From Catellatospora methionotrophica (GTDB lineage Bacteria; Actinomycetota; Actinomycetes; Mycobacteriales; Micromonosporaceae): 64,000 nucleotides of DNA. The translations under genes and the position numbers were made by a program. The notes beneath the pieces were generated by a model that saw nothing but the letters and a program-made list of their open reading frames with translations, ran no database searches and had not been told where the DNA came from. The stretch spans positions 186,001 through 250,000 of the forward strand of contig NZ_JAAOTJ010000009.1 in NCBI RefSeq assembly GCF_011297335.1. Direction: 5' to 3'. The stretch's first letter is position 1. Every line of letters begins with the position of its first letter. Below, in pieces: positions 4,011 to 61,875 of the stretch.

Positions 4011-4024
4011 CTTCACATAAAAGG

Positions 4025-37575: not shown

Positions 37576-37953
37576 ATGCGCACGCTCCTGAACATCCTGT
37601 GGTTCATCTTCGGCAGCGGCTTCCTGCTGGCCATCGCGTACGGGCTGGCCGGCATCATCTGCTTCGTCCTGATCGTGACCATCCCGTTCGGCGTGGCCTC
37701 GTTCCGGATCGCCCGGTACGCGCTCTGGCCGTTCGGCTACACGATCGTGGAGAAGCCGAGTTCGGGGCTCGCCTCCACGCTCGCCAACGTCGTCTGGCTG
37801 ATCGTGGCGGGCTGGTGGCTGGCGCTGACGCACATCGTCACCGGCGTCGCCCAGTGCATCACCATCATCGGCATCCCGTTCGGCGTCGCCAACTTCAAGC
37901 TGGTCCCCGCCGCCCTGTGGCCGCTGGGCCGAGAGATCGTCGAACGCCCCTGA
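37576..37953 (+). CDS. YccF-domain membrane protein
   Basis: 125 residues with about four hydrophobic helices. The YccF domain is present twice in short form: TIPFGVASFRIARYALWPFG (about 35-54) and GIPFGVANFKLVPAALWPLG (about 97-116), an internal duplication typical of the family. Function unknown; inner membrane. The gene ends 33 bp before family B hairpin copy 2. Confidence 0.88.
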   Translation: MRTLLNILWFIFGSGFLLAIAYGLAGIICFVLIVTIPFGVASFRIARYALWPFGYTIVEKPSSGLASTLANVVWLIVAGWWLALTHIVTGVAQCITIIGIPFGVANFKLVPAALWPLGREIVERP

Positions 37954-37986: not shown

Positions 37987-38051
37987 ATAGACGCTGGCCT
38001 ATTACGTCGAGTTTGATCTACAAATAATCGATGTAATAGGCCAGCGTCTAT
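37987..38051. repeat. Intergenic inverted repeat, family B copy 2 (24-bp stem, 17-nt loop)
   Basis: Arm 37987-38010 (ATAGACGCTGGCCTATTACG...) pairs with 38028-38051 with a single G-U and a 17-nt loop. It lies between convergent gene ends at 37953 (+) and 38074 (-). It is almost identical to the copy at 51187, loop included, 13 kb away. Confidence 0.87.
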
Positions 38052-38073
38052 GTAGGGCAATGTCGGTGCAGGG

Positions 38074-38550
38074 TCAGCGGTGCTGTTCCAGGGCGCGCTG
38101 GATGGAGCGGTAGATGCGGCCGAAGCGGGCCTCGTCGTTCACGCGGAGCAGGAGCAGCTCGCGGCCGCGCCACACCGCCCAGATCTCGTGCATGGCGATG
38201 CCCTGGTCGTAGCTGTGGTCGAGGCGGTGCAGGGTCCATTCGAGGGCGGGGCCGGCCAGGCCGACCAGCAGCACCACGATGGCCAGCGGCACCAGCACCC
38301 GGCCCGCCGCCCCGGAGTCGCCGACGGTGGTGGCGACCAGGTAGATGAGCCCGAGCAGGGTCAGCGCCGCGCCGACCACGAGGCCCGCGTTGAGGGCGCC
38401 CCGGCCGGCCATCCGGCGCATGGACCGCGGATCCGCGGTGATCTCGCGGTGCCAGACGTACTCCAGGTCCCCGAGCTGGAAGACGCGGTCGTGGATGTGG
38501 ATCGCGGTGGAGGTGACTTCCACCGCGGGATCGCGGTAATAGACGATCAT
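38074..38550 (-). CDS. DUF6232-like membrane protein
   Basis: 158 residues. The N-terminus [36 protein letters not shown] matches, from memory, the small actinobacterial DUF6232 family. Two TM helices follow ([21 protein letters not shown] and [19 protein letters not shown]), then a cytoplasmic tail with [20 protein letters not shown]. Its function is unknown. It is divergent from the enoyl-CoA hydratase gene. Confidence 0.8.
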
Positions 38551-38630
38551 CGCAGCCTCCGGCCCTCACCGTAGGCGATGTACGCAAACCGCCTAAGATC
38601 GTCCTAACGGCACTCGACGAGGAGGCAGCG

Positions 38631-39404
38631 GTGGGCGAATTCGTGAACGTGGAAGTCGACGCGGGGATCGGCACCATCCGGTTGGAACGCCCGCCGATGA
38701 ACGCGCTCAGCGTGCAGGTCCAGGAGGAGCTGCGGGCCGCGGCGCTGGCCGTGACCGCGGACAGCCGGATCGCCGCCGTCGTCGTCTACGGCGGGCCGAA
38801 GGTCTTCGCGGCGGGCGCCGACATCAAAGAGATGGCAGACATGTCGTACGTGGACATGTCCGCTCGTGCCGGTGCGCTGAGCAGCGCCTTCGACGCCATC
38901 GCGCGCATCCCGAAACCGGTCGTCGCGGCGATCACCGGTTACGCCCTGGGCGGCGGCTGCGAGCTGGCGCTGGCCTGTGACTGGCGGGTCGTCGCCGAGG
39001 ACGCCAAACTCGGCCAGCCCGAGATCAAGCTGGGCATCATCCCCGGCGCGGGCGGCACCCAGCGGCTGGCGCGGCTGATCGGCCCGGCCAAGGCCAAGGA
39101 CATCATCTTCACCGGCCGTATGGTCGACGCCGAGGAGGCTCTGGAGATCGGGCTCGCCGACCGGGTGTGCGCCGCCGAGATGGTGTACGACCAGGCCAAG
39201 GCTCTGGTCGCCGGTTTCGTGAACGGCCCCGCGCAGGCGCTGAAGGCGGCGAAGCTGGCCATCGACGGCGGCCTGGACCACGACCTCGCGACGGGTCTGG
39301 CCTGGGAGTCCCAGCTGTTCGCGGCGCTGTTCGCCACCGAGGACCGGCGCGAGGGCATGACCGCGTTCGTGGAGCGCCGCCAGGCCAAGTTCATCGGCCG
39401 CTGA
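38631..39404 (+). CDS. Enoyl-CoA hydratase/isomerase (crotonase family)
   Basis: 257 residues from the GTG at 38631 with GGAGG upstream. The crotonase oxyanion and catalytic blocks are present: [13 protein letters not shown], then [20 protein letters not shown], then [24 protein letters not shown] with the catalytic Glu. It hydrates 2-enoyl-CoA, for example crotonyl-CoA to 3-hydroxybutyryl-CoA. That would supply the missing step between the dehydrogenase at 1-1235 and Ccr, although it lies 32 kb from them. A TAAGAT sequence about 30 bases upstream may be the -10. Confidence 0.93.
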
Positions 39405-39574
39405 GTCCGGCCACCGGGCGGCGCGCCGGGCCTCGGCCCTGAACACCGCCCGGTCACAGCCGCCGCGTCGCCGCCGACCGCGACGCGGTGCGGCATTGCG
39501 TTCGCGATTTCGTGAGTCCTCTTCATATTTTCTCGCGTGCTGGATAGGCTCCCGGCACACGAAGGGACACGGTC

Positions 39575-41200
39575 ATGGCTTCTGACAGCGCTGTTTCCGG
39601 CCACGGTGGACAGCTCGCGCTGGCCGCGTTGCAGGCCGCGGGCGTACGCGAGATGTTCACCCTCTCCGGCGGGCACGTCTTCCCGCTATACGACGCGGCC
39701 CATCAGGAAGGCTTCCCGCTCTACGACGTACGGCACGAGCAGACCGCCGTGTTCGCCGCCGAGGCGGTGGCCAAACTGCAGCGCCGTCCCGGCGTCGCGG
39801 TGCTCACCGCCGGTCCCGGCGTCACCAACGGTGTCTCCGGTCTGACCAGCGCCTTCTTCAACGCCGCGCCCGTGCTCGTGCTCGGCGGGCGGGCCCCGCA
39901 GTTCCGCTGGGGCTCCGGCTCGCTGCAGGAGATCGACCACCTGCCGATCGTCGCGCCGGTCACCAAACACGCCGCCACCGTCGGCGCCACCGACGACATC
40001 GCCGCGGCGGTCACCACCGCGCTGGAACACGCGCTCGCCCCGCACCGCGGGCCGTCGTTCCTGGACCTGCCTCTCGAAGTCGTCTTCAGCACCGGCGACG
40101 GCAAGGCGGTCGCGCCGCAGATCCAGGTGCTGGAACCGGACCCCGAGCTGGTGGAGAAGGCCGCCCGGCTCATCGCGGGTGCGCAGCGCCCGGTGATCAT
40201 CGCCGGTTCCGACGTGTACGGCGGGAACGCGACCGAGGCCCTGCGCGCTGCCGCCGAGGCGCTGACCGTGCCCGTCTTCGCCAACGGCATGGGCCGCGGC
40301 ACGCTGCCGCCGAGCCACCCGCTCGCCTTCGCCAAGTCCCGCCGCAAGGCCCTGGACGGGGCGGACGTGGTCGTCGTCGTGGGCACCCCGCTCGACTTCC
40401 GGCTGGGCTTCGGCGACTTCGGCGCGGCACAGGTCGTACACATCGTCGACGCGCCGAGCCAGCGCGCCGAGCACGTCGCGGTCGCCGTCTCGCCCGCGGG
40501 CGACCTGCGCGCGATCCTGACCGGCATCGCCGCACACGCCGGGGACCGGGTGGACCACGGCGACTGGGTGGCCACGCTGCGGGCCGCCGAGCAGGCACAG
40601 GCAGCCAAGCACGAGCTGGAGATGCAGGCAGACACCGAGCTGATCAAACCGGCCCGGGTGTACGGCGAGCTGCGCAAGGTGCTGGCTGCCGACGCGGTCA
40701 CCATCGGCGACGGCGGCGACTTCGTCTCGTACGCCGGGCGCTACCTGGAGCCGTCCGTGCCCGGCAGCTGGCTCGACCCCGGCCCGTACGGCTGCCTCGG
40801 CACCGGCATGGGTTACGCCATGGGCGCCCGCGTCACCTACCCCGACCGCCAGATCTGCGTCCTGATGGGCGACGGCGCGGCCGGCTTCTCCCTGATGGAC
40901 GTCGAGTCCCTGGTCCGCCAGCAGCTTCCCGTCGTGATGGTCGTCGGCAACAACGGCATCTGGGGCCTGGAGAAGCACCCCATGCGCGCCATGTACGGCT
41001 ACGATGTCGCCGCCGACCTCCAGCCCGGCCTGCGCTACGACGACGTCGTCAAGGCCCTCGGCGGCGGCGGCGAAACCGTAGCCAAGGCCACCGACCTCCC
41101 CGCCGCCCTCGACCGCGCCTTCTCCTCAGGCGTCCCCTACCTCGTCAACGTCATCACCGACCCCGACGACGCCTACCCCCGCTCCGCCAACCTCGCCTAA
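39575..41200 (+). CDS. Thiamine-diphosphate-dependent enzyme, acetolactate-synthase-like
   Basis: 541 residues with the three ThDP-enzyme domains. The cofactor-activating Glu lies in VRHEQTAVFAAEAVAKL. The middle domain (about 190-330) has a degraded FAD-binding look. The ThDP/Mg motif is GDGAAGFSLMDVESLVRQQLPVVMVVGNN. Annotation pipelines usually say acetolactate synthase, but no small (regulatory) subunit or ilv gene is near. Relatives include oxalyl-CoA decarboxylase and 2-hydroxyacyl-CoA lyase, which fits the acyl-CoA genes around it. The exact substrate is open. Confidence 0.82.
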   Translation: MASDSAVSGHGGQLALAALQAAGVREMFTLSGGHVFPLYDAAHQEGFPLYDVRHEQTAVFAAEAVAKLQRRPGVAVLTAGPGVTNGVSGLTSAFFNAAPVLVLGGRAPQFRWGSGSLQEIDHLPIVAPVTKHAATVGATDDIAAAVTTALEHALAPHRGPSFLDLPLEVVFSTGDGKAVAPQIQVLEPDPELVEKAARLIAGAQRPVIIAGSDVYGGNATEALRAAAEALTVPVFANGMGRGTLPPSHPLAFAKSRRKALDGADVVVVVGTPLDFRLGFGDFGAAQVVHIVDAPSQRAEHVAVAVSPAGDLRAILTGIAAHAGDRVDHGDWVATLRAAEQAQAAKHELEMQADTELIKPARVYGELRKVLAADAVTIGDGGDFVSYAGRYLEPSVPGSWLDPGPYGCLGTGMGYAMGARVTYPDRQICVLMGDGAAGFSLMDVESLVRQQLPVVMVVGNNGIWGLEKHPMRAMYGYDVAADLQPGLRYDDVVKALGGGGETVAKATDLPAALDRAFSSGVPYLVNVITDPDDAYPRSANLA

Positions 41201-41314
41201 CCCCACTGCTCCACCCCCCGGCACCCTCGGCAAGCCCCGCGCGCCCGGCAAGCCCCGCGCGCCCGGCTGGGGCCGGGGGCTCCGCAGGGCCGCGCGCTCC
41301 GCGCGCTTCGGACG

Positions 41315-41364
41315 AAGGAAGGGCACCTTCCAAACGCTTCGCGTAGAGGAAGGTGCCCTTCCTT
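41315..41364. repeat. Intergenic inverted repeat, family D copy 2 (17-bp perfect stem)
   Basis: AAGGAAGGGCACCTTCC (41315-41331) is the exact reverse complement of 41348-41364; loop 16 nt. The same arms as at 21274, with the one variable base pair changed from G-U to A-U. Followed by TTAACG. Confidence 0.85.
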
Positions 41365-41401
41365 AACGCGCCGCCCACCCCGCGCCCCGTGTCCACTGGG
41401 G

Positions 41402-41466
41402 AAGATCGCTGTTTGCGGTCAAAACCTGTGGTTAGACCGCACCTTTTGACCGCAAACAGCGATCTT
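41402..41466. repeat. Intergenic inverted repeat, family A copy 3 (23-bp perfect stem)
   Basis: Arm 41402-41424 (AAGATCGCTGTTTGCGGTCA...) is the exact reverse complement of 41444-41466; loop 19 nt. It sits in the convergent gap between the ThDP enzyme and the beta-helix gene. Confidence 0.87.
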
Positions 41467-41630
41467 GCCCGGTCGGTGAACCCGCCAGCCCACCGGGCAG
41501 CTCCCCCGGATCCCTGCCAACCGAACCGGCGTGCGAACCGGCCTGTGGACCAGCCGATGCGGACCAGGGCTGCGGACCGGTACGGCAGGCCCAGCGGCGG
41601 CGGACGTGGTCGCCCGCCGCCGAGGGCCGG

Positions 41631-43688
41631 TCAGGCGGTCGCGGGTTCCGGGAGCGGGTCGGGGACCGGTGTGGCCTCGCGGGCGCGTACGGCGACGAGG
41701 ACCGCGCCGAGGGCCCACGGGATCCAGACGACCTCGGTCAGCACCCGCAGCAGCGCGGGGGAGACCGGCAGCCACGGGATCATGATCAGCCCGTGGTCGA
41801 TCGCGCCGAGCAGTGCGAACACGGCCACGATCAGCGTGGTCATCCCCAGCTTGCGGGCGGCCGTGCCGCGCAGGGCCAGGCCGAGCAGGGCGAAGCCGGC
41901 GCCGTACAGGGCGAGCCCGATCGGGTGCAGGACGCTGCCCATCTCGATGGTGCCGAACACGCCGACGGTCAGGCCGCCGATCGCGAGCAGCAGGCCGAGC
42001 AGGGCGCGCTTCGAGGCGCGCAGGCGGCGGTAGTACAGGCCGATCGCCAGCAGCCCCAGCAGGACGGCACCGCCGAACGCCCACTTCACCTCGATGCGCT
42101 CCAGGCCCGCGGCGGCGTACTCGCCGTACCAGTCGCAGTCCGACGGCAGGTGCTGGCGGCCGCCGTCGTAGCCGGCGCAGGCGTACATCTTCAGCGTTGC
42201 GGCGGGCTCGCCGAAGTAGCGGTGCGCACCGATCGCGGGCAGGTCGTCGTCGCCGCAGCCGGGCACGGTACGGAGGTTCGTGTCGGACATGTCCGTCCAG
42301 CAGCTGCCGACGCCCTGCCCGTCCCACCAGAAGTTCAGCCCGTTCGGCTTCGTCTCGCCCTTCTCGCTGACCCCCATCACGTTGTCGAGGTAGCGGTTGT
42401 GGTGCGAGGTGTCGAACTGCTGCGCGAACCCGGTGTCGTTGCGCACGAACCCCGGCACGAAGCTGGTCACGAAACCCGAGTACTGGTTGCCGTAGATGTG
42501 GTTGCCGCGCCAGATGTTGTAGTTGCCGCCCGGGTTGACCACGCCCGCGCCGACTGGCAGCCCGACCGCCGGACACACCACACCCTGCTCGTATCCGCGT
42601 TCGGCGAACGGCTTCTTGCAGGTGCCGTCGACGATGTGCCGGTAGTAGTCGGTGTTGTTGTTCGCGATGACGTTGTTCTCGAACTTCGAGTGGTTCTGCG
42701 GCATGCCCGGGTGGTCGGGGAAGGCGCTGTCGGTGGCGATGCCGGCGGTGTTCTCGGTGAAGACGCTGTCGTGCACCCAGACCGAGTCGCCGGCGGTGCC
42801 GGAGTAGCCGAGCGTGTTGTGGTGGCCGTAGCAGCGCTGGATCTCCACCGCGTAGCGCGGCACGTCGTGGCCCCGGTCCTTGTTGATGTTCGAGGCGGCG
42901 CCGGGGTAGAAGGCCGAGTCGCCGTTGCCGTAGCCCTCGCAGTCGGTGTAGAGCCCGTGGTCGACGGCGAAGGTCAGGAAGGCGTACTCGTCGTTCCAGC
43001 GGCCCATGGTCCGGTCGACCACGAAGCCGTCGGTCTCCATGATGTAGAAGGCGTTGAACTGGGCCCGTTGCGCGGACATGTTGCGCAGGTACACGCCGTC
43101 GGCGTTGTCGGCCCGGATCGCGTTGAGCTTCTTGTACTGCGCGTCGACGAGCACGTCCTCAGGCTTCGCGCCGGTGCCTTCGAGCTGGAGGTTCTTCTTG
43201 CCGAGGATGGCAACCAGGTTGGCCAGGTGCGGGCAGGCGAGCTGCTGGTCCCAGGTGAGTACGGGGTAGCCGTAGATCCGGCCGCGTACCGCGCCGTTCT
43301 CCATGGCCGCGCAGGTGGGACTGGCGGGGGCGATGCTCGGCTCCTCCAGGTATACGCCCGGAAGGATCTTGATGTTGGTGCCGGGCAGGTGGGCGGCGTC
43401 CACGGCCTGCTGGATGTGGCGGAAGCCGTCGGCCTGGCAGCGCGTCCACAGCTGCTCGTTGGCGGCCTTGAGGTCGGCGGGGAAGGCGGCGATGCGCTTG
43501 GCGAAGTCGTCCGGGTCGGTCTTGCAGACCAGCAGCGTGGGCCCGTCGGTGCGGTAGACCGGGACGCTGCCGGTGCCGTCCAGCTCGCGGGTGGCGCGTT
43601 CCTCGTGCGCCGAGGCCGCGGTGGCCGGACCGAGTATGGCGATCGCCGCCACGGCGACGGTGCCGAGCAGACGTGTGTATGCCTTCAT
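41631..43688 (-). CDS. Secreted right-handed beta-helix protein with C-terminal membrane domain
   Basis: 685 residues. A signal peptide (LLGTVAVAAIAILGPATAASA) is followed by about 500 residues of pectate-lyase/NosD-like beta-helix: GFRHIQQAVDAA, GVYLRNMSAQRAQFNAFYIMETDGFVVDRT, WVHDSVFTENTAGIATDS, SKFENNVIANNNTDYY, NIWRGNHIYGNQYSGF. Many Cys suggest disulfides. After residue about 540 come five TM helices (VLLGLLAIGLYY ... LLGLLLAIGGLTVGVFG ... LTEVVWIPWALGAVLVA). The fusion of an outside beta-helix to a membrane bundle suggests a surface-anchored polysaccharide-active or adhesive protein. Catalytic residues could not be assigned. Confidence 0.82.
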   Translation of the reverse strand: MKAYTRLLGTVAVAAIAILGPATAASAHEERATRELDGTGSVPVYRTDGPTLLVCKTDPDDFAKRIAAFPADLKAANEQLWTRCQADGFRHIQQAVDAAHLPGTNIKILPGVYLEEPSIAPASPTCAAMENGAVRGRIYGYPVLTWDQQLACPHLANLVAILGKKNLQLEGTGAKPEDVLVDAQYKKLNAIRADNADGVYLRNMSAQRAQFNAFYIMETDGFVVDRTMGRWNDEYAFLTFAVDHGLYTDCEGYGNGDSAFYPGAASNINKDRGHDVPRYAVEIQRCYGHHNTLGYSGTAGDSVWVHDSVFTENTAGIATDSAFPDHPGMPQNHSKFENNVIANNNTDYYRHIVDGTCKKPFAERGYEQGVVCPAVGLPVGAGVVNPGGNYNIWRGNHIYGNQYSGFVTSFVPGFVRNDTGFAQQFDTSHHNRYLDNVMGVSEKGETKPNGLNFWWDGQGVGSCWTDMSDTNLRTVPGCGDDDLPAIGAHRYFGEPAATLKMYACAGYDGGRQHLPSDCDWYGEYAAAGLERIEVKWAFGGAVLLGLLAIGLYYRRLRASKRALLGLLLAIGGLTVGVFGTIEMGSVLHPIGLALYGAGFALLGLALRGTAARKLGMTTLIVAVFALLGAIDHGLIMIPWLPVSPALLRVLTEVVWIPWALGAVLVAVRAREATPVPDPLPEPATA

Positions 43689-43947
43689 GGCGGCGGAGCC
43701 TAGAGAACCTTTCACGTTCTGGCCAGACCCCGCGCCGACGTGCCCCAAGGTCATCCGTTTTGCCAGGCGAGTGGGCGGAAGCGCGTCCATGATTCGCCCC
43801 CGTGCCGGGCAAATCGGACGATCATGTTGCCTCTCGCGGGCAGGTCGCGAGGATCTTCATCTGTCCGGGTGGTGAGCCTGGTGGAAACATGAGAAGTTCT
43901 CTAAACTCCGCCGCGACGGGAATCACACCTGGCCCGAGGGACCCCCC

Positions 43948-45237
43948 ATGACCGAACCGGCCACGCTCACCACGGCTGACCCCGCAACGCCTCCGCCCGC
44001 CGTCTTCGCCGAGCCGGAACGGCCGGTCACCGGCCGCTGGATCAGCCTGTTCGCGCTGGCCTGGCTGGGCATCTGGATGGCGCAGCTGACCCCCGTGCAG
44101 CTGATGCTGCCGATCCAGGTCGAGGCGCAGCTCAAGGCCGCCGACTGGGTCGACAACGTGGTGGCCTTCGGTGTCGTGTCCGGCATCGCGGGCGCGTTCG
44201 CGCTGATCGCGTACCCGCTGACCGGAGCCCTCTCGGACCGTACGGTGTCGCGGTTCGGCCGCCGCCGTCCCTGGATCGTGTTCGGCGCGCTGCTGTTCGC
44301 CGTCTCGCTGGTGGTGCTCGGCCTGCAGGAGGGCATCGTCGGCATCGGCGTCTGGTGGACGCTGACCCTGGTCGGCTTCTGCGTGCTCACCGCGGCGCTC
44401 ACCGCCACGATCTCCGACCAGGTCCCGGTGGGCCAGCGCGGGTACGTCTCCGGCTGGATCTCCGCCCCGCAGGCGATCGGCACCATCCTCGGCATCGTGC
44501 TGGTCACCGAGCTGGCGCTCAGCCAGATCATCGGCTACTCGCTGATGGCCGCGCTGCTGGTACTGCTGGTGCTGCCGTTCGTGCTCGGCGCGCCGGACCA
44601 GGTGCTGCCGCGCGCGGCCCGCCCGCCGTTCACGTTCCGCGACCTGGCCGCCGGGTTCTGGATCAGCCCGCGCCGCTACCCCGACTTCGGCTGGACGCTG
44701 CTCAGCCGCATCCTGGTCAACGTCGGCAACGCGCTGGGCACCACCCTGCTGCTGTTCTTCCTGATGTACCACGTCAAGGTGGAAAAGGCCGAGGACGCCC
44801 TGCTCGTCCTGACGCTGATCTACATGTTCTTCGTGGTGCTGGCCGCGCTGTTCCTAGGCCGGCTGTCGGACCGCATCGGACGGCGCAAGGTCTTCGTTCT
44901 CGTCTCGTCGGGGTTGCAGGGCGTCGCCGCCGTACTGCTGGCGTTCTTCCCGAACCTGACCGTGGCCACCGTCGGCGCGGGCCTGCTCGGCCTGGGCTAC
45001 GGCTGCTTCCTGTCGGTGGACCAGGCGCTGGCCACCCAGGTGCTGCCGGACCCGGCGGCGCGCGGCAAGGACCTCGGCATCATGAACATCGCCACGGCGG
45101 TGCCGCAGGCCATGGCCCCGCTGCTCGGCGCGTTCGTCGTCGCGCAGTTGGGCGGCTTCGGGCCGCTGTACGTGGCGTCCGGTGTTATCTCGGTGCTCGG
45201 CGCACTCGCCGTGCTGCCGGTGAAGGGAGTGCGCTGA
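43948..45237 (+). CDS. MFS transporter
   Basis: 429 residues, 12 predicted TM helices. The loop 2-3 motif of sugar-cation MFS carriers is seen as GALSDRTVSRFGRRRPWIVFG, and its counterpart in the second half as GRLSDRIGRRKVFVLVS. It is the first gene of a four-gene operon with overlapping stops and starts, ending in a GH1 beta-glucosidase, so import of a glycoside or sugar is likely. The GRRRPW motif recalls the sucrose/GPH-like carriers. Confidence 0.88.
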   Translation: MTEPATLTTADPATPPPAVFAEPERPVTGRWISLFALAWLGIWMAQLTPVQLMLPIQVEAQLKAADWVDNVVAFGVVSGIAGAFALIAYPLTGALSDRTVSRFGRRRPWIVFGALLFAVSLVVLGLQEGIVGIGVWWTLTLVGFCVLTAALTATISDQVPVGQRGYVSGWISAPQAIGTILGIVLVTELALSQIIGYSLMAALLVLLVLPFVLGAPDQVLPRAARPPFTFRDLAAGFWISPRRYPDFGWTLLSRILVNVGNALGTTLLLFFLMYHVKVEKAEDALLVLTLIYMFFVVLAALFLGRLSDRIGRRKVFVLVSSGLQGVAAVLLAFFPNLTVATVGAGLLGLGYGCFLSVDQALATQVLPDPAARGKDLGIMNIATAVPQAMAPLLGAFVVAQLGGFGPLYVASGVISVLGALAVLPVKGVR

Positions 45238-46478
45238 TGACTCTGGCGCTGGCTGTGTCGGCCCCGTCCACGGCCCGGCCGTGGGAGGACGCCGACACGT
45301 ACTGGTCGGCCATGAACGCGGCGACCGCGGCGCTGGATCCGGTGTTCGGCGTGGTGAACCTGGCCGCGCTGTCGTACAACGCGCACGACCTGGCCCGCCG
45401 CGCGAACGGTGTGCCGATCCGCGTCGCCAGCAAGTCCGTGCGCTGCCGCGGGGTGCTCGACGCGGTGCTGGCGCTGCCGGGTTACCACGGTGTGCTGGCG
45501 TACACCCTGGCCGAGGCGCTGTGGCTGGCCGAGACGATCGACGACGTGGTCGTCGGTTACCCGAGCGCCGACCGCGACGCCATCGCCCGGCTGGCCGCCT
45601 CGCCCGAGCCGGCCGCCCGGGTCACCATCATGATCGACTCGGTGGACCACCTGGACCTCGTGGATGCCGTCGTCGCGCCGGGCGCGCGGGCCGACATCCG
45701 GGTCGCCATCGAGCTGGACTCGTCGTTCAAGTCGCGGCTGCTCGGGCACATCGGGGTGTGGCGCTCGCCGGTGCACCGGGCCGAGCAGGCCCGCGCGCTG
45801 GCTGAGGCGGTCGTCGCCCGGCGCGGCTTCCGGCTGGTCGGCATGATGGGGTACGAAGCACAGGTCGCCGGGCTCGGCAACGCCCCGAAGGGCAGCCCGC
45901 TGCGCGGCGCGCTGGTGCGCGCGTTGCAGCGGTCCTCGATGGCCGAGCTGGTCGAGCGCCGCGCGGCGGCCGTCGCGGCCGTGAACGCGCTGGCCCCGCT
46001 GGAGTTCGTCAACGGCGGTGGCACAGGCAGCATCGAGGTCACCGGCGCGGACGCTTCGGTGACCGAGGTCGCGGCCGGTTCGGGGCTGTTCGGCCCGCAC
46101 CTGTTCGACAACTACGCCCACTTCACCCCGGCTCCCGCGGCCGCGTTCGCGCTGCCGGTGGTACGCCGTCCCGCCCCGGACCGGGTCACCCTGCTCGGCG
46201 GCGGCTGGATCGCGTCCGGGCCGCCGGGGGTGGACCGGCTTCCGCAGATCGTCTGGCCGCAAGGGCTGAAGATGGTGCCCCGGGAGATGGCCGGGGAGGT
46301 GCAGACCCCGGTGACGGGCGAACCCGCGACCCGGCTGCGCCTCGGTGACCGGGTCTGGCTGCGGCACACCAAGGCGGGCGAGCTGTCCGAGCACGTCAAC
46401 GAGCTTCACCTGATCGACGCAGACACGGTCGTGGGGACCCTGCCCACGTACCGTGGTGAAGGAAAGGCATTCCTGTGA
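45237..46478 (+). CDS. PLP-dependent amino acid deaminase/aldolase (alanine-racemase-like barrel)
   Basis: 413 residues; the ATG shares one base with the MFS stop codon. The N-terminal PLP barrel has the Schiff-base lysine K66 in RVASKSVRCRGVL. GMMGYEAQVAG and FVNGGGTGSIE are typical phosphate-binding parts of the D-threonine aldolase / D-serine dehydratase-like group. The C-terminal beta domain includes HTKAGELSEHVNELHLI. It probably cleaves or deaminates a D-hydroxy-amino acid. How that fits with a sugar-lactone oxidase and a GH1 in one operon is unclear. Confidence 0.82.
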   Translation: MTLALAVSAPSTARPWEDADTYWSAMNAATAALDPVFGVVNLAALSYNAHDLARRANGVPIRVASKSVRCRGVLDAVLALPGYHGVLAYTLAEALWLAETIDDVVVGYPSADRDAIARLAASPEPAARVTIMIDSVDHLDLVDAVVAPGARADIRVAIELDSSFKSRLLGHIGVWRSPVHRAEQARALAEAVVARRGFRLVGMMGYEAQVAGLGNAPKGSPLRGALVRALQRSSMAELVERRAAAVAAVNALAPLEFVNGGGTGSIEVTGADASVTEVAAGSGLFGPHLFDNYAHFTPAPAAAFALPVVRRPAPDRVTLLGGGWIASGPPGVDRLPQIVWPQGLKMVPREMAGEVQTPVTGEPATRLRLGDRVWLRHTKAGELSEHVNELHLIDADTVVGTLPTYRGEGKAFL

Positions 46479-47782
46479 GCAGCACCGTGTGGCGCAACTG
46501 GAGCCGGATCGAGAGCGTGACCCCGGCGCGGGTCGCGTATCCCGGCAGCCCCGACGAGGTCGTGCAGGCGATCGCCGCCGCGCGCGCCGACGGGCTGCGG
46601 GTCAAGCCGATCGGCGCGGGCCACAGCTTCACCGGCATCGCCGTCGCCCCCGGTGTGCAGCTCGACCTGCGTAACCTCCAGGGCGTGCTGGCCGTCGACT
46701 CCCAGCGCCACCGGGTGAAGCTCGCGGCGGGCACCCACCTTTACCGGCTGCCGGAGCTGCTGAAGCCGTACGGGCTGGCGCTGCAGAACATGGGTGACAT
46801 CGACGCGCAGACCATCGCCGGGGCGACCTCGACCGGCACGCACGGCACCGGGCACGCGTTCGGCGGCCTGGCCACGCAGATCGTCGCGCTGACCCTGGCC
46901 ACCGCCGACGGCGGCATCCTGGAGGTCTCCTCCGACGCCAACCCGGAGCTGCTCGACGCGGCCAGGGTGGGCCTGGGCGCGCTCGGGGTGCTGCTCGACA
47001 TCACCGTGCAGTGCGTGCCCGCGTTCCAGCTCCAGGCGATCGAGAAGCCGGAGCCGCTGGCCGAGGTGCTGGCCCAGTGGGAGCAGCGGGCGACGGCCGT
47101 GGACCACTTCGAGTTCTACTGGTTCCCGCACACGAAGACCGCGCTGACCAAGAGCAACACCCGGTTGCCGATGGACGCCCCGCGCAAGCCGCTGGGCGGC
47201 TTCCAGCGCTGGCTGGACGACGACTTCATGTCGAACACCCTGTTCAACGGGGTGTGCCACCTCGGCAAGGCGGTGCCCGCGCTGACGCCGCCGATCAACC
47301 GGCTGGCCCAGCGGCTCACCAACAACCGCGAGTTCACCGACGTGTCCACGTCGGTGTTCACCACCAAGCGTGAAGTGCGCTTCCGGGAGATGGAGTACGC
47401 CCTGCCGCGTGAGGAGGTGCCCGACGTGCTGCGCGCGCTGGACCGCCTGATCACGCAGAACGGCTGGCGCATCTCGTTCCCGGTCGAGGTGCGGGCCGCC
47501 GCGCCGGACGACCTCTGGCTGTCCACCGCGCACGGGCGCGAGACCGGCTACGTGGCGATCCACCGTTTCTTCAAGGAGGACCCGCACACCTACTTCCGGC
47601 TCGCCGAGCAGATCTTCCGCGCGCACGGCGGCCGCCCGCACTGGGGCAAGATGCACTACCAGGACGCGAGCACGCTCGCCCCGACGTACCCCCGGTTCGG
47701 CGACTTCCTCGCGGTGCGCGACCGGCTCGACCCCGAGCGCGTCTTCGCCAACGACTACCTGGACCGGGTGCTGGGCGCGTGA
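46475..47782 (+). CDS. FAD-linked sugar-lactone/alditol oxidase (D-arabinono-1,4-lactone oxidase family)
   Basis: 435 residues; GTG start overlapping the previous stop by 4 nt. The N-terminal VAO/PCMH FAD domain shows the candidate covalent-flavin His in IGAGHSFTGIAV and the GATSTGTHGTGH loop. The C-terminal ALO domain ends WGKMHYQDAS ... YPRFGDFLAVRDRLDPERVFANDYL, diagnostic for aldonolactone and alditol oxidases. It oxidises a sugar lactone or polyol with O2. The enzyme is cytoplasmic; there is no signal or TM segment. Confidence 0.9.
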   Translation: MSSTVWRNWSRIESVTPARVAYPGSPDEVVQAIAAARADGLRVKPIGAGHSFTGIAVAPGVQLDLRNLQGVLAVDSQRHRVKLAAGTHLYRLPELLKPYGLALQNMGDIDAQTIAGATSTGTHGTGHAFGGLATQIVALTLATADGGILEVSSDANPELLDAARVGLGALGVLLDITVQCVPAFQLQAIEKPEPLAEVLAQWEQRATAVDHFEFYWFPHTKTALTKSNTRLPMDAPRKPLGGFQRWLDDDFMSNTLFNGVCHLGKAVPALTPPINRLAQRLTNNREFTDVSTSVFTTKREVRFREMEYALPREEVPDVLRALDRLITQNGWRISFPVEVRAAAPDDLWLSTAHGRETGYVAIHRFFKEDPHTYFRLAEQIFRAHGGRPHWGKMHYQDASTLAPTYPRFGDFLAVRDRLDPERVFANDYLDRVLGA

Positions 47783-49167
47783 TGGATCCGTTCATTCCCA
47801 GGGACTTCACGCTCGGCGTCGCCACGGCGGCTTACCAGATCGAGGGTGCGGTCGCCGAGGGCGGGCGCGGGGTGTCGGTGTGGGACACGTTCTGCGGGCA
47901 GCCCGGCCGGGTGCTCGGCGGCGACACCGGTGCGGTCGCCTGCGACCACTACCACCGTTACGAGCAAGACCTTGATCTGGTACGCGACCTCGGCGCGGAC
48001 GCGTACCGGTTCTCCATCGCGTGGCCGCGCATCCAAGCCGACGGCACCGGACCGGCCAACCCGGACGGCCTCGCGTTCTACGACCGGCTCGTCGACGCGA
48101 TGCTGGCCCGTGGCATCGAGCCGGTGGCCACCCTGTTCCACTGGGACACCCCGCAGGCCCTGGAGGACGCGGGCGGCTGGCTGTCACGCGACACCGCCGA
48201 GCGCTTCGGCGAGTACGCCGCCCTGCTGGGGGCGCGCCTCGGTGACCGGGTCGGCAAGTGGATCACGATCAACGAACCGCACTCGGTGACGCTGGCCGGA
48301 TACGCCACCGGCGCGCACGCGCCCGGCCACGCGCTGCTGTTCGACGCGCTGCCCGCCGCCCACCACCAGCTGCTCGGCCACGGCCTGGCCGTGCGGGCGC
48401 TGCGCGCCGCCGGGGTCGCGGGGCAGATCGGCATCACCAACGTGCACACGCCCGTGGTGCCCGCCTCGGACCGCCCCGAGGACCAGCTCGCCGCTGCCCT
48501 GTACGACCTGATCGCCAACCGGTTCTTCGAGGACCCGGTGCTGCTCGGGCGGTATCCGCAGGCCCCGGAGCCGTTCACCGAGCTGTTCGCCGCGTTCGGC
48601 GCGGTGCCCGCGGAGGATCTGGCCGTGATCAGCTCACCGCTGGACTTCTACGGCGTCAACTACTACTACCCGAGCAAGGTCGGCATGGCCGACCCGGATG
48701 CGGTCACCGACCACACGCCCGAGGGCGACTTCGCGCGCGTGGGTGAGCTGCCGTTCGCCTTCGCCGAGATCGAGGGCGTGCCGCGGACCGGTTTCGGCTG
48801 GCCGGTCAGCCCGGCCGGGCTCGCCGACACCCTCGACGAACTGTCCGAACGCTACGGTGACCGGCTGCCCCCGGTGTACATCACCGAGGGCGGCGCGAGC
48901 TTCCCGGACGAGGTCGCCCCGGACGGCTCGGTGCCCGACCCGCAGCGCGTCGACTACCTGCGCGAACATCTCGCGGTGGCGCTGCGCAAGCGGGCCGAGG
49001 GGCTCGACCTGCGCGGTTACTTCGTGTGGAGCCTGCTCGACAACTTCGAGTGGGCCGCCGGATACAGCCAGCGGTTCGGGCTGGTGCACGTCGACTACCC
49101 GACCCAGTCCCGTACGCCCAAGGAGTCGTTCCACTGGCTCGCCGGGCGGCTGCGCGAACGCGGCTAG
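47782..49167 (+). CDS. GH1 beta-glucosidase
   Basis: 461 residues, full length for family 1. Acid/base Glu165 in TINEPHSVT and nucleophile Glu near 369 in VYITEGGAS; also QIEGA near the N-terminus and YGVNYYYPSKV. It hydrolyses beta-glucosides in the cytoplasm, matching the importer at the head of the operon. The ATG shares one base with the previous stop. Its TAG stop lies within CTAG, whose other strand is the stop of the convergent 49164 gene. Confidence 0.95.
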   Translation: MDPFIPRDFTLGVATAAYQIEGAVAEGGRGVSVWDTFCGQPGRVLGGDTGAVACDHYHRYEQDLDLVRDLGADAYRFSIAWPRIQADGTGPANPDGLAFYDRLVDAMLARGIEPVATLFHWDTPQALEDAGGWLSRDTAERFGEYAALLGARLGDRVGKWITINEPHSVTLAGYATGAHAPGHALLFDALPAAHHQLLGHGLAVRALRAAGVAGQIGITNVHTPVVPASDRPEDQLAAALYDLIANRFFEDPVLLGRYPQAPEPFTELFAAFGAVPAEDLAVISSPLDFYGVNYYYPSKVGMADPDAVTDHTPEGDFARVGELPFAFAEIEGVPRTGFGWPVSPAGLADTLDELSERYGDRLPPVYITEGGASFPDEVAPDGSVPDPQRVDYLREHLAVALRKRAEGLDLRGYFVWSLLDNFEWAAGYSQRFGLVHVDYPTQSRTPKESFHWLAGRLRERG

Positions 49168-49565
49168 TCGTCGGCCTTGTCCTGCTTGCGCAGCTCCTCT
49201 TCGCGGCGGCGCAGGTCCATCTCCCACTTGCTCAGCAACTCGCGGTCATCGGCGGCGGTCTGCTGCTGCTCCTTGGCGATCCGGCGCAGGAACTCCGGGT
49301 CGTCGTCGGGGGCCAGCGCGCGGCCGGGCCGCTGGGCCTCGGGGAAGCCGCTGCCCTGCCGCCACACCTTCGGGCTCGGGGTCGCCTCACGGCCGACGAC
49401 GAACCAGGCGATGGCGCCGATGGGCGGGAAGAACAGAATGATCAGCACCCAGCCCCAGCGCGGCAGCGCGTTGAGGCGGTGCTCCTCGGCGGACAGGCAG
49501 CTGATCAGCGCGGCGACCGTCAGCACCGTCTGAGCCAGGAAGATGAACAACCACAGGCGTCCCAC
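49164..49565 (-). CDS. PLDc_N-type membrane protein with charged tail
   Basis: 133 residues with a GTG start. Two TM helices with the phospholipase D N-terminal-like motif (LPRWGWVLIILFFPPIGAIAWFVVGR) and a cytoplasmic charged helix at the C-terminus (KEQQQTAADDRELLSKWEMDLRRREEELRKQ). There is no PLD catalytic HKD motif. Last gene of a small minus-strand set of membrane proteins. Function unknown. Confidence 0.83.
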   Translation of the reverse strand: MGRLWLFIFLAQTVLTVAALISCLSAEEHRLNALPRWGWVLIILFFPPIGAIAWFVVGREATPSPKVWRQGSGFPEAQRPGRALAPDDDPEFLRRIAKEQQQTAADDRELLSKWEMDLRRREEELRKQDKADD

Positions 49566-49582
49566 GGCCTAGAGCGTAGACC

Positions 49583-49891
49583 TCACCAGAGGATCAGGAG
49601 TACCCCCAACAGGCCCATCAGGACACCGGTGATCGTCACCACGGCCAGCGTGCGGGCGACCGCCACCGGGTCCTGCCGGTCCATCGCCCGGATCCGCCGC
49701 TGCGCGACCAGCAGCAGCACCAGCCAGCACAGCAGGGACAGCGCCAGTCCCAGCGCCCCGGCCTCGTCCAGTCCGCGTTCGAACGCGAGCCGGAACAGCA
49801 GCAGCGCGCAGACCGTGCCGGACAGCACCGTGCGCCGCCAGGCCAACCGGGTCCGCTCGGCCTGCGCCCCGTGTTCGACCGGGCTACCCAC
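49583..49891 (-). CDS. DUF202-like small membrane protein
   Basis: 102 residues with three hydrophobic helices (GTVCALLLFRLAFERG, ALGLALSLLCWLVLLLVA, AVVTITGVLMGLLGVLLIL). The ERTRLAWRRTVLSG start is the DUF202 signature. It is 17 nt upstream of the PLDc_N gene and 42 nt downstream of another DUF202-type gene, so the three are probably one transcript. Confidence 0.82.
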   Translation of the reverse strand: MGSPVEHGAQAERTRLAWRRTVLSGTVCALLLFRLAFERGLDEAGALGLALSLLCWLVLLLVAQRRIRAMDRQDPVAVARTLAVVTITGVLMGLLGVLLILW

Positions 49892-49933
49892 GACCCGCCC
49901 CCGCGGGCCCTCGCGCGCCGCGGTGTGCGGTGT

Positions 49934-50326
49934 TCACCGGGCGCGGTACCAGTCGATGAAGACCTCGAACAGGAGGGCCAGCGAGCCCACCGTGACGACG
50001 AGCGCGAGCACCGCGGGGAAGCGTGACGGTGGCAGGGGCCGGCCGTTGCGCATCGCGATCTCGCAGCGGATCCAGTGGTCGACGGCGCGCAGCGCGCAGC
50101 CCGCGCCGAGCAGGATCAGGGCGACGCCGAGGATCTTCGTCATGTGCGGCACGGCCATCGGCGGCAGGAACTGGGCCACCACCAGGCCACCGCCGATCAT
50201 GGCGAGGCCGGTGCGGATCCAGGCGAGGAAGGTGCGCTCGTTGGCCAGCGAGAAGCGATAGTCGGGAGTCTGCCCGGTTTCGTGAACTTCGCGAGGATCA
50301 AACCAGTTGCGTACTCTAGCCAGCAC
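49934..50326 (-). CDS. YidH/DUF202 family membrane protein
   Basis: 130 residues from a GTG at 50326. WFDPREVHETGQTPDYRFSLANERTFLAWIRTGLAMIGGG is the classic DUF202/YidH start, followed by three TM helices. Because the divergent GNAT gene begins at 50345, only 18 bp separate the two start codons. The TACTAG just upstream would be a -10 for a transcript with almost no leader. Start choice is moderately sure. Confidence 0.83.
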   Translation of the reverse strand: MLARVRNWFDPREVHETGQTPDYRFSLANERTFLAWIRTGLAMIGGGLVVAQFLPPMAVPHMTKILGVALILLGAGCALRAVDHWIRCEIAMRNGRPLPPSRFPAVLALVVTVGSLALLFEVFIDWYRAR

Positions 50327-50344
50327 CTTCCTAGTATCGGGGCG

Positions 50345-51151
50345 ATGACTTCTCAACTTGATGCCGACGCCCTGCTGCGGGCGTACGACGAGCAACTGCG
50401 CACCGAGATCCCCGACCCCCTGCCCGCGGGCATGGTCGTCGAGTGGGACGGCCCGGTGGTCCGGATGAGCGGGCTCGACCGCGGCGGATTCGTCACCTAT
50501 CGCGACGTGTCCCCGCTCAGCGGCCCCGACCTCGACGCGCTCATCGCCCGCCAGCGCGACTACTTCGCCGCCCGCGGCGAGGAGGTCGAGTGGAAGCTGC
50601 GCGGCCACGACCTGCCCGCCGACCTGCCCGAGCGGCTTGAGGCGGCCGGTTTCGCGCCCGACGAGCTGGAGACGGTGATCATCGGGTTGGCCGCGCCGCT
50701 GGCCCAGCCGCCGGTGCTGCCGGACGGGGTCACCCTGCGCGAGGTGACCGCGCGGGCCGACCTGGAGCGGATCGCGGCCATGGAGGAGGCGGTCTGGCAC
50801 GACGACCGCAGCCACCTGGTGTACGGCCTGGCCAAGGAGCTGGAGGCGGACCCGCACGGGTTGACGATCGTGGTCGCCGAGGCCGGTGACGAGGTGGTCA
50901 GCGCGGGGTGGATCCGGTACGAGAAGGGGACCGACTTCGCCGGGCTGTGGGGCGGGTCGACGCTGGAGCAGTGGCGGGGTAGGGGGATCTACAAGGCGCT
51001 GGTGGCGTACCGGGCGGTTCGGGCGGTCGAGCGCGGGTTCACGTACTTGCAGGTCGACGCGTCGTCGGACAGCCGGCCGATCCTGGAGCGGCTGGGCATG
51101 GTCGCGGTGACGACCACCACGCCGTACATCTGGCGACCTGCCACGGCGTGA
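50345..51151 (+). CDS. GNAT N-acetyltransferase
   Basis: 268 residues. The C-terminal GNAT domain (about 125-260) shows VSAGWIRYEKGTDFAGLWGGSTLEQWRGRGIYKALVAYRAVRA, with the acetyl-CoA loop WRGRGIYKAL, and the terminal ASSDSRPILERLGMVAV. The N-terminal half looks like a degenerate GNAT-like domain. The acceptor substrate is unknown. The ATG is only 18 bp from the divergent DUF202 start, so the promoters overlap. Confidence 0.85.
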   Translation: MTSQLDADALLRAYDEQLRTEIPDPLPAGMVVEWDGPVVRMSGLDRGGFVTYRDVSPLSGPDLDALIARQRDYFAARGEEVEWKLRGHDLPADLPERLEAAGFAPDELETVIIGLAAPLAQPPVLPDGVTLREVTARADLERIAAMEEAVWHDDRSHLVYGLAKELEADPHGLTIVVAEAGDEVVSAGWIRYEKGTDFAGLWGGSTLEQWRGRGIYKALVAYRAVRAVERGFTYLQVDASSDSRPILERLGMVAVTTTTPYIWRPATA

Positions 51152-51186
51152 CGATGGTGCGCCGTTGCGCGCCGCGTGGGTTTTCC

Positions 51187-51251
51187 ATAGACGCTGGCCT
51201 ATTACATCGAGTTTGATCTCCGAATAATCGATGTAATAGGCCAGCGTCTAT
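51187..51251. repeat. Intergenic inverted repeat, family B copy 3 (24-bp perfect stem, 17-nt loop)
   Basis: Arm 51187-51210 (ATAGACGCTGGCCTATTACA...) is the exact reverse complement of 51228-51251. Compared with 37987 it differs by one stem base, which turns that copy's G-U into A-U, and two loop bases. It lies between convergent ends at 51151 (+) and 51277 (-). Confidence 0.88.
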
Positions 51252-51276: not shown

Positions 51277-51453
51277 TCAAGTGCGGGCCGGGTGCCAGAG
51301 GTCGCGGATCGTGTCGCGGACGCAGTCGTCGCGTAGGCGGCCGCAGGTGCACAGGTGTTCGTCGGGCTCGGGTTGCCGGTGGTGTTCCGCCTCGGGCGGG
51401 ATGCCCGGTTCAGTCGTGGAGCGGCCCGGCAGGGGTGCGGTTTGCGTGTTCAT
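51277..51453 (-). CDS. Small protein with CxC...C motif, unknown
   Basis: 58 residues from the ATG at 51453, which has AGGAGGT 10 bases upstream. The N-terminal half is Pro/Glu/His-rich (GIPPEAEHHRQPEPDEH), followed by LCTCGRLRDDCVRDTIRDLW. The three cysteines could bind metal or thiols. I do not recognise the family. The strong ribosome site and position between a hairpin and a long promoter region support it being a real gene. Confidence 0.6.
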   Translation of the reverse strand: MNTQTAPLPGRSTTEPGIPPEAEHHRQPEPDEHLCTCGRLRDDCVRDTIRDLWHPART

Positions 51454-51505
51454 GTCAGACACCTCCTGCTACGCGCGACTTTACGCCGACAAGCAGCACG
51501 ACCGG

Positions 51506-59650: not shown

Positions 59651-59653
59651 CGT

Positions 59654-61875
<2,222 letters not shown>

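What the first reader, a model, noticed from the sequence alone, without database searches (positions are those of the whole stretch)
37987..51251. Family B hairpins: covarying long stems at three convergent junctions
Three elements (2571-2637, 37987-38051, 51187-51251) share the outer arm ATAGACGYTGGCCTAT, a 24-25-bp stem and a loop of exactly 17 nt. Each sits between two convergent genes. Copies 2 and 3 are nearly identical. Copy 1 has different inner stem bases, and one outer base pair, that still pair perfectly. Conserved pairing with changed sequence means the fold is under selection. No U tract follows, so these are not classic terminators; they could be bidirectional stops, cruciform or nucleoid marks, or non-autonomous mobile palindromes.
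Basis: partly seen in the sequence, partly recalled or inferred. Interest (0 to 1): 0.85.

Follow-up and report, generated by a model that had tools for sequence, protein, structure and literature searches.

The report
Fixed-length hairpin repeats at gene ends
These soil bacteria carry about a hundred copies of a 65-letter DNA hairpin, almost always just behind the ends of genes, where related species may hold other hairpins or ordinary transcription stops, so it probably works as a two-way gene-end signal.

Summary
The three hairpins are real and G000 has about 113 copies. The family occurs in all 11 genomes of the genus (Catellatospora) and in 0 of 343 others of its taxonomic family. Length is nearly fixed: all 39 pairs of perfect arms listed have the same 49-bp offset, and 164 of 170 copies held are 65 bp. 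The freely varying stem pairs are the top covarying columns.

Copies begin a median 43 nt behind stop codons; 0 of 162 lie inside a called gene. Many sit at the same junction in other species although the flanks have turned over. At the window's three junctions, several species lacking it carry unrelated hairpins, two of them with A/T tracts as in intrinsic terminators.

Best explanation: a bidirectional, U-tract-less 3'-end hairpin (terminator or exonuclease barrier), dispersed by an unknown route. Termination is not shown. No target duplication or RAYT link was found. Covariation alone does not prove selection, since template switching can restore stems.

Five further unrelated hairpin families here also have near-invariant lengths.

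The parts
2572..2636 (+). Copy 1, 65-bp element (one extra G-C pair makes the palindrome 2571-2637): arms 2572-2587 and 2621-2636, variable inner stem 2588-2595/2613-2620, loop 2596-2612; GATC-side loop reads on the + strand
   Evidence: folds at -57.1 kcal/mol, z -11.0
37987..38051 (+). Copy 2: arms 37987-38002 and 38036-38051, inner stem 38003-38010/38028-38035 (one G-T pair), loop 38011-38027
   Evidence: z -11.6
51187..51251 (+). Copy 3: arms 51187-51202 and 51236-51251, inner stem 51203-51210/51228-51235, loop 51211-51227
   Evidence: z -10.8 on + strand, -9.2 on - strand
1736..2515 (+). upstream convergent gene of copy 1
   Evidence: gene call; its last 366 bases matched in all 11 genus genomes
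2679..4016 (-). opposite convergent gene of copy 1
37576..37953 (+). upstream convergent gene of copy 2 (125 aa; called YccF-like from recall, no family search was run)
38074..38550 (-). opposite convergent gene of copy 2
50345..51151 (+). upstream convergent gene of copy 3
   Evidence: end matched in all 11 genus genomes
51277..51462 (-). small (61 aa) opposite convergent gene of copy 3
   Evidence: ORF; DNA conserved across the genus; missed by my automatic caller

Best explanation
The element is a dispersed 65-bp palindrome (16-bp conserved arms with one freely covarying base pair at position 8, 8-bp inner stem of which six pairs vary freely, 17-nt loop) kept in the 3'-end slot of genes, mainly at convergent junctions. 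Transcribed from either side it forms a 24-bp hairpin that starts about 40 nt behind the stop codon. Most likely this long hairpin, without a U tract, defines the 3' ends of the converging transcripts, either by stopping RNA polymerase (I-shaped or U-lacking terminator) or by blocking 3'-5' exonucleases after Rho-dependent termination. The slot is functional and the hairpin interchangeable: related species fill it with other hairpin families or terminator-like hairpins, or leave it empty. Shown here: geometry, copy number, 3'-end placement, covariation, retention at orthologous junctions, slot exchange. Inferred: that it terminates or protects transcripts, and that selection for this keeps it. 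Unknown: how it spreads and why its length is fixed.
For: Placement: of 99 G000 copies 59 convergent, 33 tandem, 5 divergent, 2 at fragment edges, 0 in genes; convergent enrichment odds ratio 10.7, p 9e-22 (background is gaps of 20 nt or more in the same DNA, the copies' own gaps subtracted). Over 162 oriented genus copies 95 convergent, 58 tandem, 7 divergent, 2 edge, 0 in genes; stop-to-element distance median 43 nt, IQR 27-60. Orientation: in tandem contexts the GATC-loop strand is the sense strand of the upstream gene in 42 of 58 (p 0.0009; 21 of 30 in G000 alone). Folding strand: G-T outnumber A-C stem mispairs 92 to 60 on that strand (p 0.012); MFE is lower on it in 93 of 162. Retention: 14 of 20 G002 and 14 of 21 G005 elements detected in fetched loci, and 1 of 1 from G010, lie at a junction where G000 also has one; of the 29 pairs 25 have homologous DNA on both sides within 700 nt and 4 on one side, while the immediate flanks mostly do not align. 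Exchange: at the junction of copy 1, G010 and G002 carry a hairpin with A and T tracts and G007, G001 other hairpins; at that of copy 3, G002 and G008/G004/G009 carry two other hairpin families; at that of copy 2, G002, G006, G003, G010 carry unrelated GC-rich hairpins. Precedent: many structured 3' ends in Streptomyces clavuligerus lack U tracts (353 of 535 highly structured ends; PMC8269248, passages read).
Against: No transcript data. There is no U tract, and the 17-nt loop is longer than the 4-8 nt said to be optimal in E. coli (PMC8269248, passage). The 3' base of the hairpin lies about 108 nt behind the stop (43 + 65), farther than the 66-76 nt median transcript ends of Streptomyces (PMC12207403, passage). 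Terminators need no conserved arm sequence and no fixed length, so termination alone does not explain the invariant arm motif or the 65 bp. Outward flanks (A-rich then CGGGG) are conserved on both sides even in 32 tandem copies, with no preference for the sense 3' side (p 0.40), which fits DNA-level recognition or an inherited insertion site as well. Empty slots occur: G008 and G004 at copy 1 (G009 only a 10-bp hairpin), G007 and G001 at copy 3, G005 and G007 at copy 2; and 30 of 46 convergent gaps tallied over the syntenic window had no hairpin of score 13 or more (some of these are weaker hairpins or projection errors). The G010 copy at junction 3 has a broken stem. G005 shows no G-T excess (7 versus 9). 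Tandem orientation counts include related copies, so the p-value is optimistic.
Confidence: 0.57

Rival explanations
1. A non-autonomous mobile palindrome (REP- or MITE-like) without cellular function: it inserts or is tolerated only behind genes, and the slot reflects target preference and purging elsewhere.
For: About 113 copies in G000, genus-restricted; presence/absence between relatives at one junction (J43: G006 has it in a 127-bp gap, while G000, G002, G003, G005 have 7-36 bp; G010 and G007 have 75 and 198 bp without it); genome-wide shift of base pair 8 (C in G000 is T or A in G005 at 10 of 10 ortholog pairs with C; the 4 with T never are C); REPs of other bacteria also lie between convergent or co-directional genes (PMC3733652, passages).
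Against: No target-site duplication above shuffle in 164 copies; in about 826 kb around copies no unpaired arm except two 3-mismatch matches, so no sign of a larger element with these ends; Y1 transposase genes do not track copy number: G008 and G009 (127, 140 copies) have none, G007 (3 copies) has one; position is often kept and orientation is kept in 20 of 25 ortholog pairs; terminator-like hairpins occupy the same slot elsewhere; no match in plasmid, phage or viral collections (the viral scan was exact-pattern, the other two used copy 3).
Confidence: 0.25
2. The covariation is mutational: template switching or intragenomic conversion homogenises the arms, and the fold is not selected.
For: Template switching can create and maintain stems (PMC8794818, abstract). 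Inner stems often differ in blocks between recurring modules, and 5 of 25 ortholog pairs have the opposite loop orientation, as spacer inversion would give (PMC8604942, start of abstract in listing).
Against: Template switching does not obviously fix the length (39 of 39 listed arm pairs at one offset), keep arms (0.92 between orthologs) above loop (0.60), or place elements behind stops. It may still be the mutational route of the paired changes.
Confidence: 0.1
3. A DNA-level site (cruciform or duplex) for an unknown protein, for example a nucleoid or chromosome-organising factor.
For: Nearly invariant arm motif and fixed spacing; symmetric conserved flanks even in tandem copies; uneven genomic density (15 of 98 copies in five large contigs, 42.8 expected); genome-wide shift of one base pair in G005.
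Against: Sense-strand loop orientation in tandem copies and G-T tolerance point to a folded single strand; the slot is filled by unrelated hairpins in other species.
Confidence: 0.08

Closest known systems
Repetitive extragenic palindromes (REP/BIME) and other stem-loop repeat families
   Same: Dispersed extragenic palindromes in high copy, mostly between convergent or co-directional genes (PMC3733652, PMC2267715, passages)
   Different: 65 bp with a 24-bp stem instead of a 20-40 bp REP; no unpaired GTAG or CGTC tag; no RAYT link by copy number; invariant length; inner stem covaries; slot shared with unrelated hairpin families
U-lacking / I-shaped terminators of GC-rich actinobacteria
   Same: Strong hairpin behind genes without U tract; HS-U-lack 3' ends in S. 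clavuligerus (PMC8269248), weak U tracts with long stable hairpins in Streptomyces (PMC12207403); passages
   Different: The passages read do not describe one repeated sequence of fixed length; the hairpin here ends farther from the stop (about 108 nt against 66-76); 3' ends were not measured here
DNA-uptake-signal terminators (Neisseria, Pasteurellaceae)
   Same: A repeated motif in inverted pairs forming gene-end hairpins (PMC1852404, passages)
   Different: Uptake signals are about 9-11 nt and generally at least 1,000 copies; here arms occur almost only as pairs at fixed spacing, about 113 pairs
Compensatory evolution of intrinsic terminators in Bacillus cereus
   Same: Paired substitutions in gene-end hairpins; terminators shared by convergent genes are more constrained (PMC5381666, passages)
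   Different: Those are intrinsic terminators of many genes, not one repeat family

Membership tests
REP (GTAG/CGTC type) | unpaired GTAG or CGTC tetranucleotide at one end | tested here: not met
   consensus ends are paired ATAG..CTAT; CGTC lies inside the stem
REP (GTAG/CGTC type) | 20-40 bp unit | tested here: not met
   65 bp in 164 of 170 copies held
REP (GTAG/CGTC type) | association with a RAYT (Y1) transposase | tested here: not met
   Pfam Y1_Tnp in 6 of 11 genomes, not tracking copy number; local linkage to copies not tested. [quoted passage not shown]
REP (GTAG/CGTC type) | extragenic, between convergent or co-directional genes | tested here: met
   0 of 162 in genes; 95 convergent, 58 tandem, 7 divergent, 2 edge
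MITE | target-site duplication | tested here: not met
   no excess of identical flanks for 2-10 nt in 164 copies; old duplications could have decayed
MITE | autonomous element sharing its inverted repeats | tested here: inconclusive
Canonical intrinsic terminator | U tract after the hairpin | tested here: not met
   3 of 324 outward flanks have 4 or more T in 8 nt
Canonical intrinsic terminator | stable hairpin shortly behind the stop codon | tested here: met
I-shaped / U-lacking terminator | transcript 3' ends at the hairpin | not testable with these tools
   no RNA data
DNA-uptake-signal terminator | motif also present as frequent single copies | tested here: not met
Rfam families | match above gathering score | tested here: not met
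   0 matches in the window; for copy 3 only sub-threshold hits, all 19 to microRNA-precursor families

The most novel reading that the evidence does not exclude
Several sequence-unrelated palindrome families in one genus each keep a near-invariant length (about 60-65 bp for five of them), keep their spacing while loop sequence varies, and replace each other and terminator-like hairpins in the same gene-end slots. The most novel reading is that one cellular machine, not yet known, copies, places or reads gene-end hairpins by a length ruler rather than by sequence, giving a class of exchangeable hairpin cassettes.
Probability: 0.2. Interest if true: 0.85.

Novelty: new variant of a known kind. 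Interest (0 to 1): 0.62.

Why it matters
How high-GC actinobacteria end transcripts without strong U tracts is not settled in the papers read here. This is a natural series of about a hundred gene-end hairpins per genome, with orthologous junctions where the hairpin is present, swapped for another family, swapped for a terminator-like hairpin, or absent. That makes the question directly testable by 3'-end sequencing of a few type strains. The near-invariant length shared by unrelated families points to a constraint or machine that, to my knowledge, models of terminators and REPs do not include.

Tried and rejected
RAYT-driven dispersal: the Y1_Tnp search shows no correlation with copy number; rejected as a current driver. 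Target-site duplication: none. Stem continuing into the flanks: the consensus flanks look complementary (CCCCGYTTTT / AAAACGGGG), but pairing within individual copies is not above shuffle, and is below it at +/-1 (z -3.4) and +/-5 (z -3.1), so the palindrome ends at 65 bp. A separate apical helix in the loop: 4 of 4 pairs possible in 84 of 162 against 65.5 expected after shuffling, and most of its column pairs rank low in mutual information; suggestive only. Transcription-direction effect on flanks: none. Plasmid, phage and viral carriers: no match. Hamadaea hairpin as a large family: 1-2 exact-pattern copies in 3 genomes of one genus, plus one dissimilar match in another genus. Rfam: nothing above gathering. 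Literature: the listings show no title or abstract start that describes this element; they cover open-access text only and three are capped (12 of 24, 10 of 2,025 and 8 of 105 papers shown), so this is weak evidence of absence.

Limits: genes were called with my own codon-score caller, which missed at least one small gene (51277-51462) and may mislabel some contexts. Copies were mostly collected with fixed-spacing or narrow-spacing patterns, so the 164 of 170 is partly ascertained; the less biased evidence is the single-arm search: 39 of 39 listed pairs of perfect arms share one offset, 22 listed arms having no perfect partner in the list. Families A and C-F were searched with free spacing of 30-110 bp. 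Relatives' copies are not random samples: the G005 copies fetched had perfect arms; the G002 copies were those listed (one search counts 27). Of 29 ortholog pairs, 4 with a 64- or 66-nt partner were dropped. In one search two of 172 matches (G000 L102, G004 L341) are chance matches (6 and 5 mismatches) and are left out of 170. The 10% sharing rate used is my assumption, and its two samples (14/21, 14/20) are the G005 and G002 ones. Projected gap edges, reused, are wrong for G002 and G010 at J1; searches show the true junctions.
Full report
OBSERVATION. The three hairpins exist as described. Each core is 65 bp: a 16-nt arm, an 8-nt inner stem, a 17-nt loop, then the partners. Copy 1 has one further G-C pair, and copy 2 has one G-T pair. 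All three lie between convergent genes; for copy 3 the opposite gene is a 61-aa ORF at 51277-51462 that my gene caller missed but whose DNA is conserved in relatives. One block-shuffled window contains no hairpin of comparable strength, while the real window has nine, all in gaps next to a gene 3' end.

COPY NUMBER AND RANGE. In the 8.39-Mb genome G000 the 16-nt arm with up to 2 mismatches occurs 114 times forward and 114 times reverse, against 0 and 1 for the reversed pattern. The 63-bp paired pattern with up to 3 mismatches gives 113 copies in G000 and 1, 17, 112, 69, 75, 1, 124, 123, 50 and 66 in the ten other genomes of the genus. With a 59-bp core pattern all 11 genus genomes match and 0 of 343 other genomes of the family, from 43 other genera, do. 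The genus is Catellatospora: the four best named hits of the yccF-like neighbour are Catellatospora species at 90-96% identity, and contig lengths identify G003 as C. sichuanensis, G005 as C. coxensis, G006 as C. vulcania, G004 as C. tritici and G009 as Catellatospora sp. KI3 (an inference from equal contig lengths).

GEOMETRY. In the single-arm search, which imposes no spacing, 100 perfect arms are listed: 39 forward-reverse pairs lie within 200 bp and all 39 have the same 49-bp offset; 22 listed arms have no perfect partner in the list. I fetched DNA around 98 listed copies of G000 (with the window). With a search that tolerates 59-72 bp, 95 of 95 matches found were 65 bp (one copy is counted twice, and five further copies were missed by the script and added by hand). 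In a wider set of 172 matches, 2 are chance matches; of the other 170, 164 are 65 bp, 4 are 66 and 2 are 64, the six exceptions being in G002 and G005; in G000 97 of 97 are 65 bp. These copies had mostly been picked with fixed or narrow spacing, so this figure is partly ascertained. In G008, G009 and G004 many listed copies use a different inner stem and loop at the same length. The palindrome stops at 65: although the flanks share a consensus (reading outward, A-rich then CGGGG), pairing of the two flanks within a copy is no better than after shuffling.

COVARIATION. On 162 distinct oriented copies with 20-nt flanks, the four column pairs with the highest corrected mutual information out of 5,460 are stem partners, and all seven freely varying stem pairs (8/58 and 17-22/44-49) are in the top eleven; the others of that group reflect linkage among inner-stem columns. 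Position 8 takes all four base pairs. Arm pairs 6, 10-13, 15 and 16 never changed in 94 G000 copies. Between species, at 25 orthologous junctions (4 of 29 dropped for length), 600 stem pairs divide into 483 unchanged, 54 changed on both sides with Watson-Crick pairs in both species, 17 one-sided involving a G-T, 34 other one-sided, and 12 other two-sided. Identity is 0.92 in arms, 0.71 in inner stem and 0.60 in the loop.

PLACEMENT. Of 99 G000 copies 59 are convergent, 33 tandem, 5 divergent, 2 at fragment edges and none in a gene. Against other gaps in the same DNA the convergent enrichment has odds ratio 10.7. Over 162 oriented copies from 11 genomes the median stop-to-element distance is 43 nt; the hairpin's far end is thus about 108 nt from the stop, farther than the 66-76 nt median transcript ends of Streptomyces (PMC12207403, passage). 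The element has a direction: one loop half carries GATC. In tandem contexts this strand is the sense strand of the upstream gene 42 times out of 58, and on this strand G-T mispairs outnumber A-C (92 to 60). Both point to a folded single strand made from the upstream gene, with the caveats that related copies are not independent and that G005 alone does not show the G-T excess (7 versus 9).

ORTHOLOGOUS JUNCTIONS. Of the elements detected in fetched relatives' loci, 14 of 20 in G002, 14 of 21 in G005 and 1 of 1 in G010 are at a junction where G000 also has one; 25 of these 29 have homologous DNA on both sides within 700 nt, 4 on one side only. My rough expectation for random sharing is about 10%; against that assumption the excess is large. 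The flanks next to the element mostly do not align, although longer aligned stretches are mostly 87-96% identical. Orientation is the same in 20 of 25 pairs, and the central 33 nt are more alike between orthologs than between unrelated copies (22.5 versus 19.3 of 33, p 0.0006). Position is therefore often inherited, while inner stem and loop turn over fast. In G005, base pair 8 (read on the loop-oriented 5' arm) differs from C at all 10 pairs where G000 has C, and none of the other 4 is C: a genome-wide shift that suggests homogenisation or a co-evolving factor.

SLOT EXCHANGE. At the junction of copy 1, G000, G006 and G005 have the element. G010 and G002 have a hairpin flanked by A and T tracts, the signature of a bidirectional intrinsic terminator. 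G007 has a 25-bp palindrome and G001 another hairpin. G008 and G004 show no hairpin and G009 a 10-bp one; in G003 the right-hand side differs and no hairpin is found. At the junction of copy 3, G000, G006, G005 and G003 have the element and G010 has one with a broken stem; G002 has a TTGATCATGAAC hairpin; G008, G004 and G009 have a GCAGTTTCGGGGAAA hairpin; G007 and G001 have none. At the junction of copy 2, of seven genomes that could be compared only G000 has the element; G002, G006, G003 and G010 have unrelated GC-rich hairpins; G005 and G007 have gaps of 4 and 1 bp; in G004 and G009 the right-hand gene differs, and G001 and G008 were not resolved. Two Hamadaea MAGs and H. tsunoensis have yet another long hairpin behind yccF (read by eye). 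Across the syntenic window, 16 convergent gaps of at most 400 bp with a hairpin of score 13 or more have median length 126 bp and 30 without one 15.5 bp (weaker hairpins and two known projection errors count as 'without'). Slot exchange is the strongest evidence that the hairpin does a job that other hairpins can do; empty slots show that the job is not indispensable.

OTHER FAMILIES WITH FIXED LENGTH. The genus carries further repeat hairpins at gene ends. Searched with free spacing between outer landmarks, their lengths are nearly invariant: A 61 bp in 29 of 33, C 59 in 21 of 24, D 46 in 17 of 23, E 57 in 16 of 17, F 60 in 22 of 23, and B (this element) 59 in 148 of 155. A, like B, has a 65-bp palindrome once its paired ends are included. 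In family C, 30 of 30 exact-pattern copies in five genomes have exactly 17 nt between 21-nt arms although 5-29 were allowed. A length rule across unrelated sequences is not expected from simple terminators.

MECHANISM. I favour a bidirectional 3'-end hairpin. RNA folding of the three window copies is far stronger than shuffles (z about -11). U-lacking structured 3' ends are common in Streptomyces clavuligerus (353 U-lacking of 535 highly structured ends; PMC8269248, passages), and covariation was reported in Streptomyces terminator hairpins (PMC12207403, passages). Whether the hairpin itself releases polymerase or protects Rho-generated ends cannot be told from sequence. How it spreads is open: no target duplication, no transposase correlation, no clear lone arm that would mark a larger element in the DNA examined, no plasmid, phage or viral copy found. 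Covariation alone is not proof of selection, because template switching can restore stems (PMC8794818, abstract).

NOVELTY. The element has no Rfam match above gathering score (sub-threshold microRNA-hairpin hits), and the listings of six literature searches (open-access text, three of them capped) show no description of it. It resembles REPs and stem-loop repeat families in dispersal and placement but fails their defining features (tag, size, RAYT). I therefore call it a new variant of a known kind, works-like 'U-lacking terminator', not filed as a REP or MITE.

Noticed in passing
window 7084-7148, 24309-24373, 41402-41466, 54760-54824: Family A hairpins (AAGATCGCYGTTT..AAACRGCGATCTT), each exactly 65 bp, in gaps at gene 3' ends; 29 of 33 held matches have the same length.
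   Followed up: partly
window 8956-9014, 14911-14969: Family C hairpins (CAACTCTTAAAGA..); 30 of 30 exact-pattern copies in five genomes keep a 17-nt spacing with variable loop. The one at 8956 is kept at the same junction in six species.
   Followed up: partly
window 41317-41362 and 21274-21319; 23415-23472: Families D (GGAAGGGCACCTTCC, 46 bp between landmarks in 17 of 23) and E (TGATCATGAACTT, 57 bp in 16 of 17; the window copy is the 58-bp exception) also have near-fixed length.
   Followed up: partly
L337-L348 (G008, G004, G009): Family F (GCAGTTTCGGGGAAA..TTTCCCCGAAACTGC), 60 bp in 22 of 23, commonest in these three genomes in the DNA held and found in slots that hold B elsewhere.
   Followed up: partly
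G000 contigs; G002 contig C1: Uneven density: 15 of 98 listed copies lie in five large contigs holding 44% of the genome, 42.8 expected; in G002 none of 20 listed copies (of 27 counted) lies in the first 1.0 or last 1.3 Mb of the 8.9-Mb contig (both chosen after looking).
   Followed up: no
flanks of 164 copies: Outward flank consensus (A-rich then CGGGG) on both sides that does not pair within a copy; pairing at +/-1 and +/-5 is below shuffle.
   Followed up: partly
G005 versus G000 ortholog pairs: Base pair 8 is C in G000 but T or A in G005 at all 10 of the 14 pairs where G000 has C.
   Followed up: partly
L134, L135, L138: Hamadaea carries another long hairpin (GGATCAGGG..CCCTGATCC) behind the yccF-like gene; only 1-2 exact-pattern copies per genome in 3 genomes of one genus.
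   Followed up: partly
G000 C1:658086, C1:1168910, C10:148898: Three Y1 (IS200-like) transposase genes with open frames of 150 aa in G000; no link to this element found.
   Followed up: partly
window 59650-59776 (J46): Another hairpin (GATCYGTTTT..AAAACAGATC) kept behind the same gene in six species with a 22-24 nt loop.
   Followed up: no
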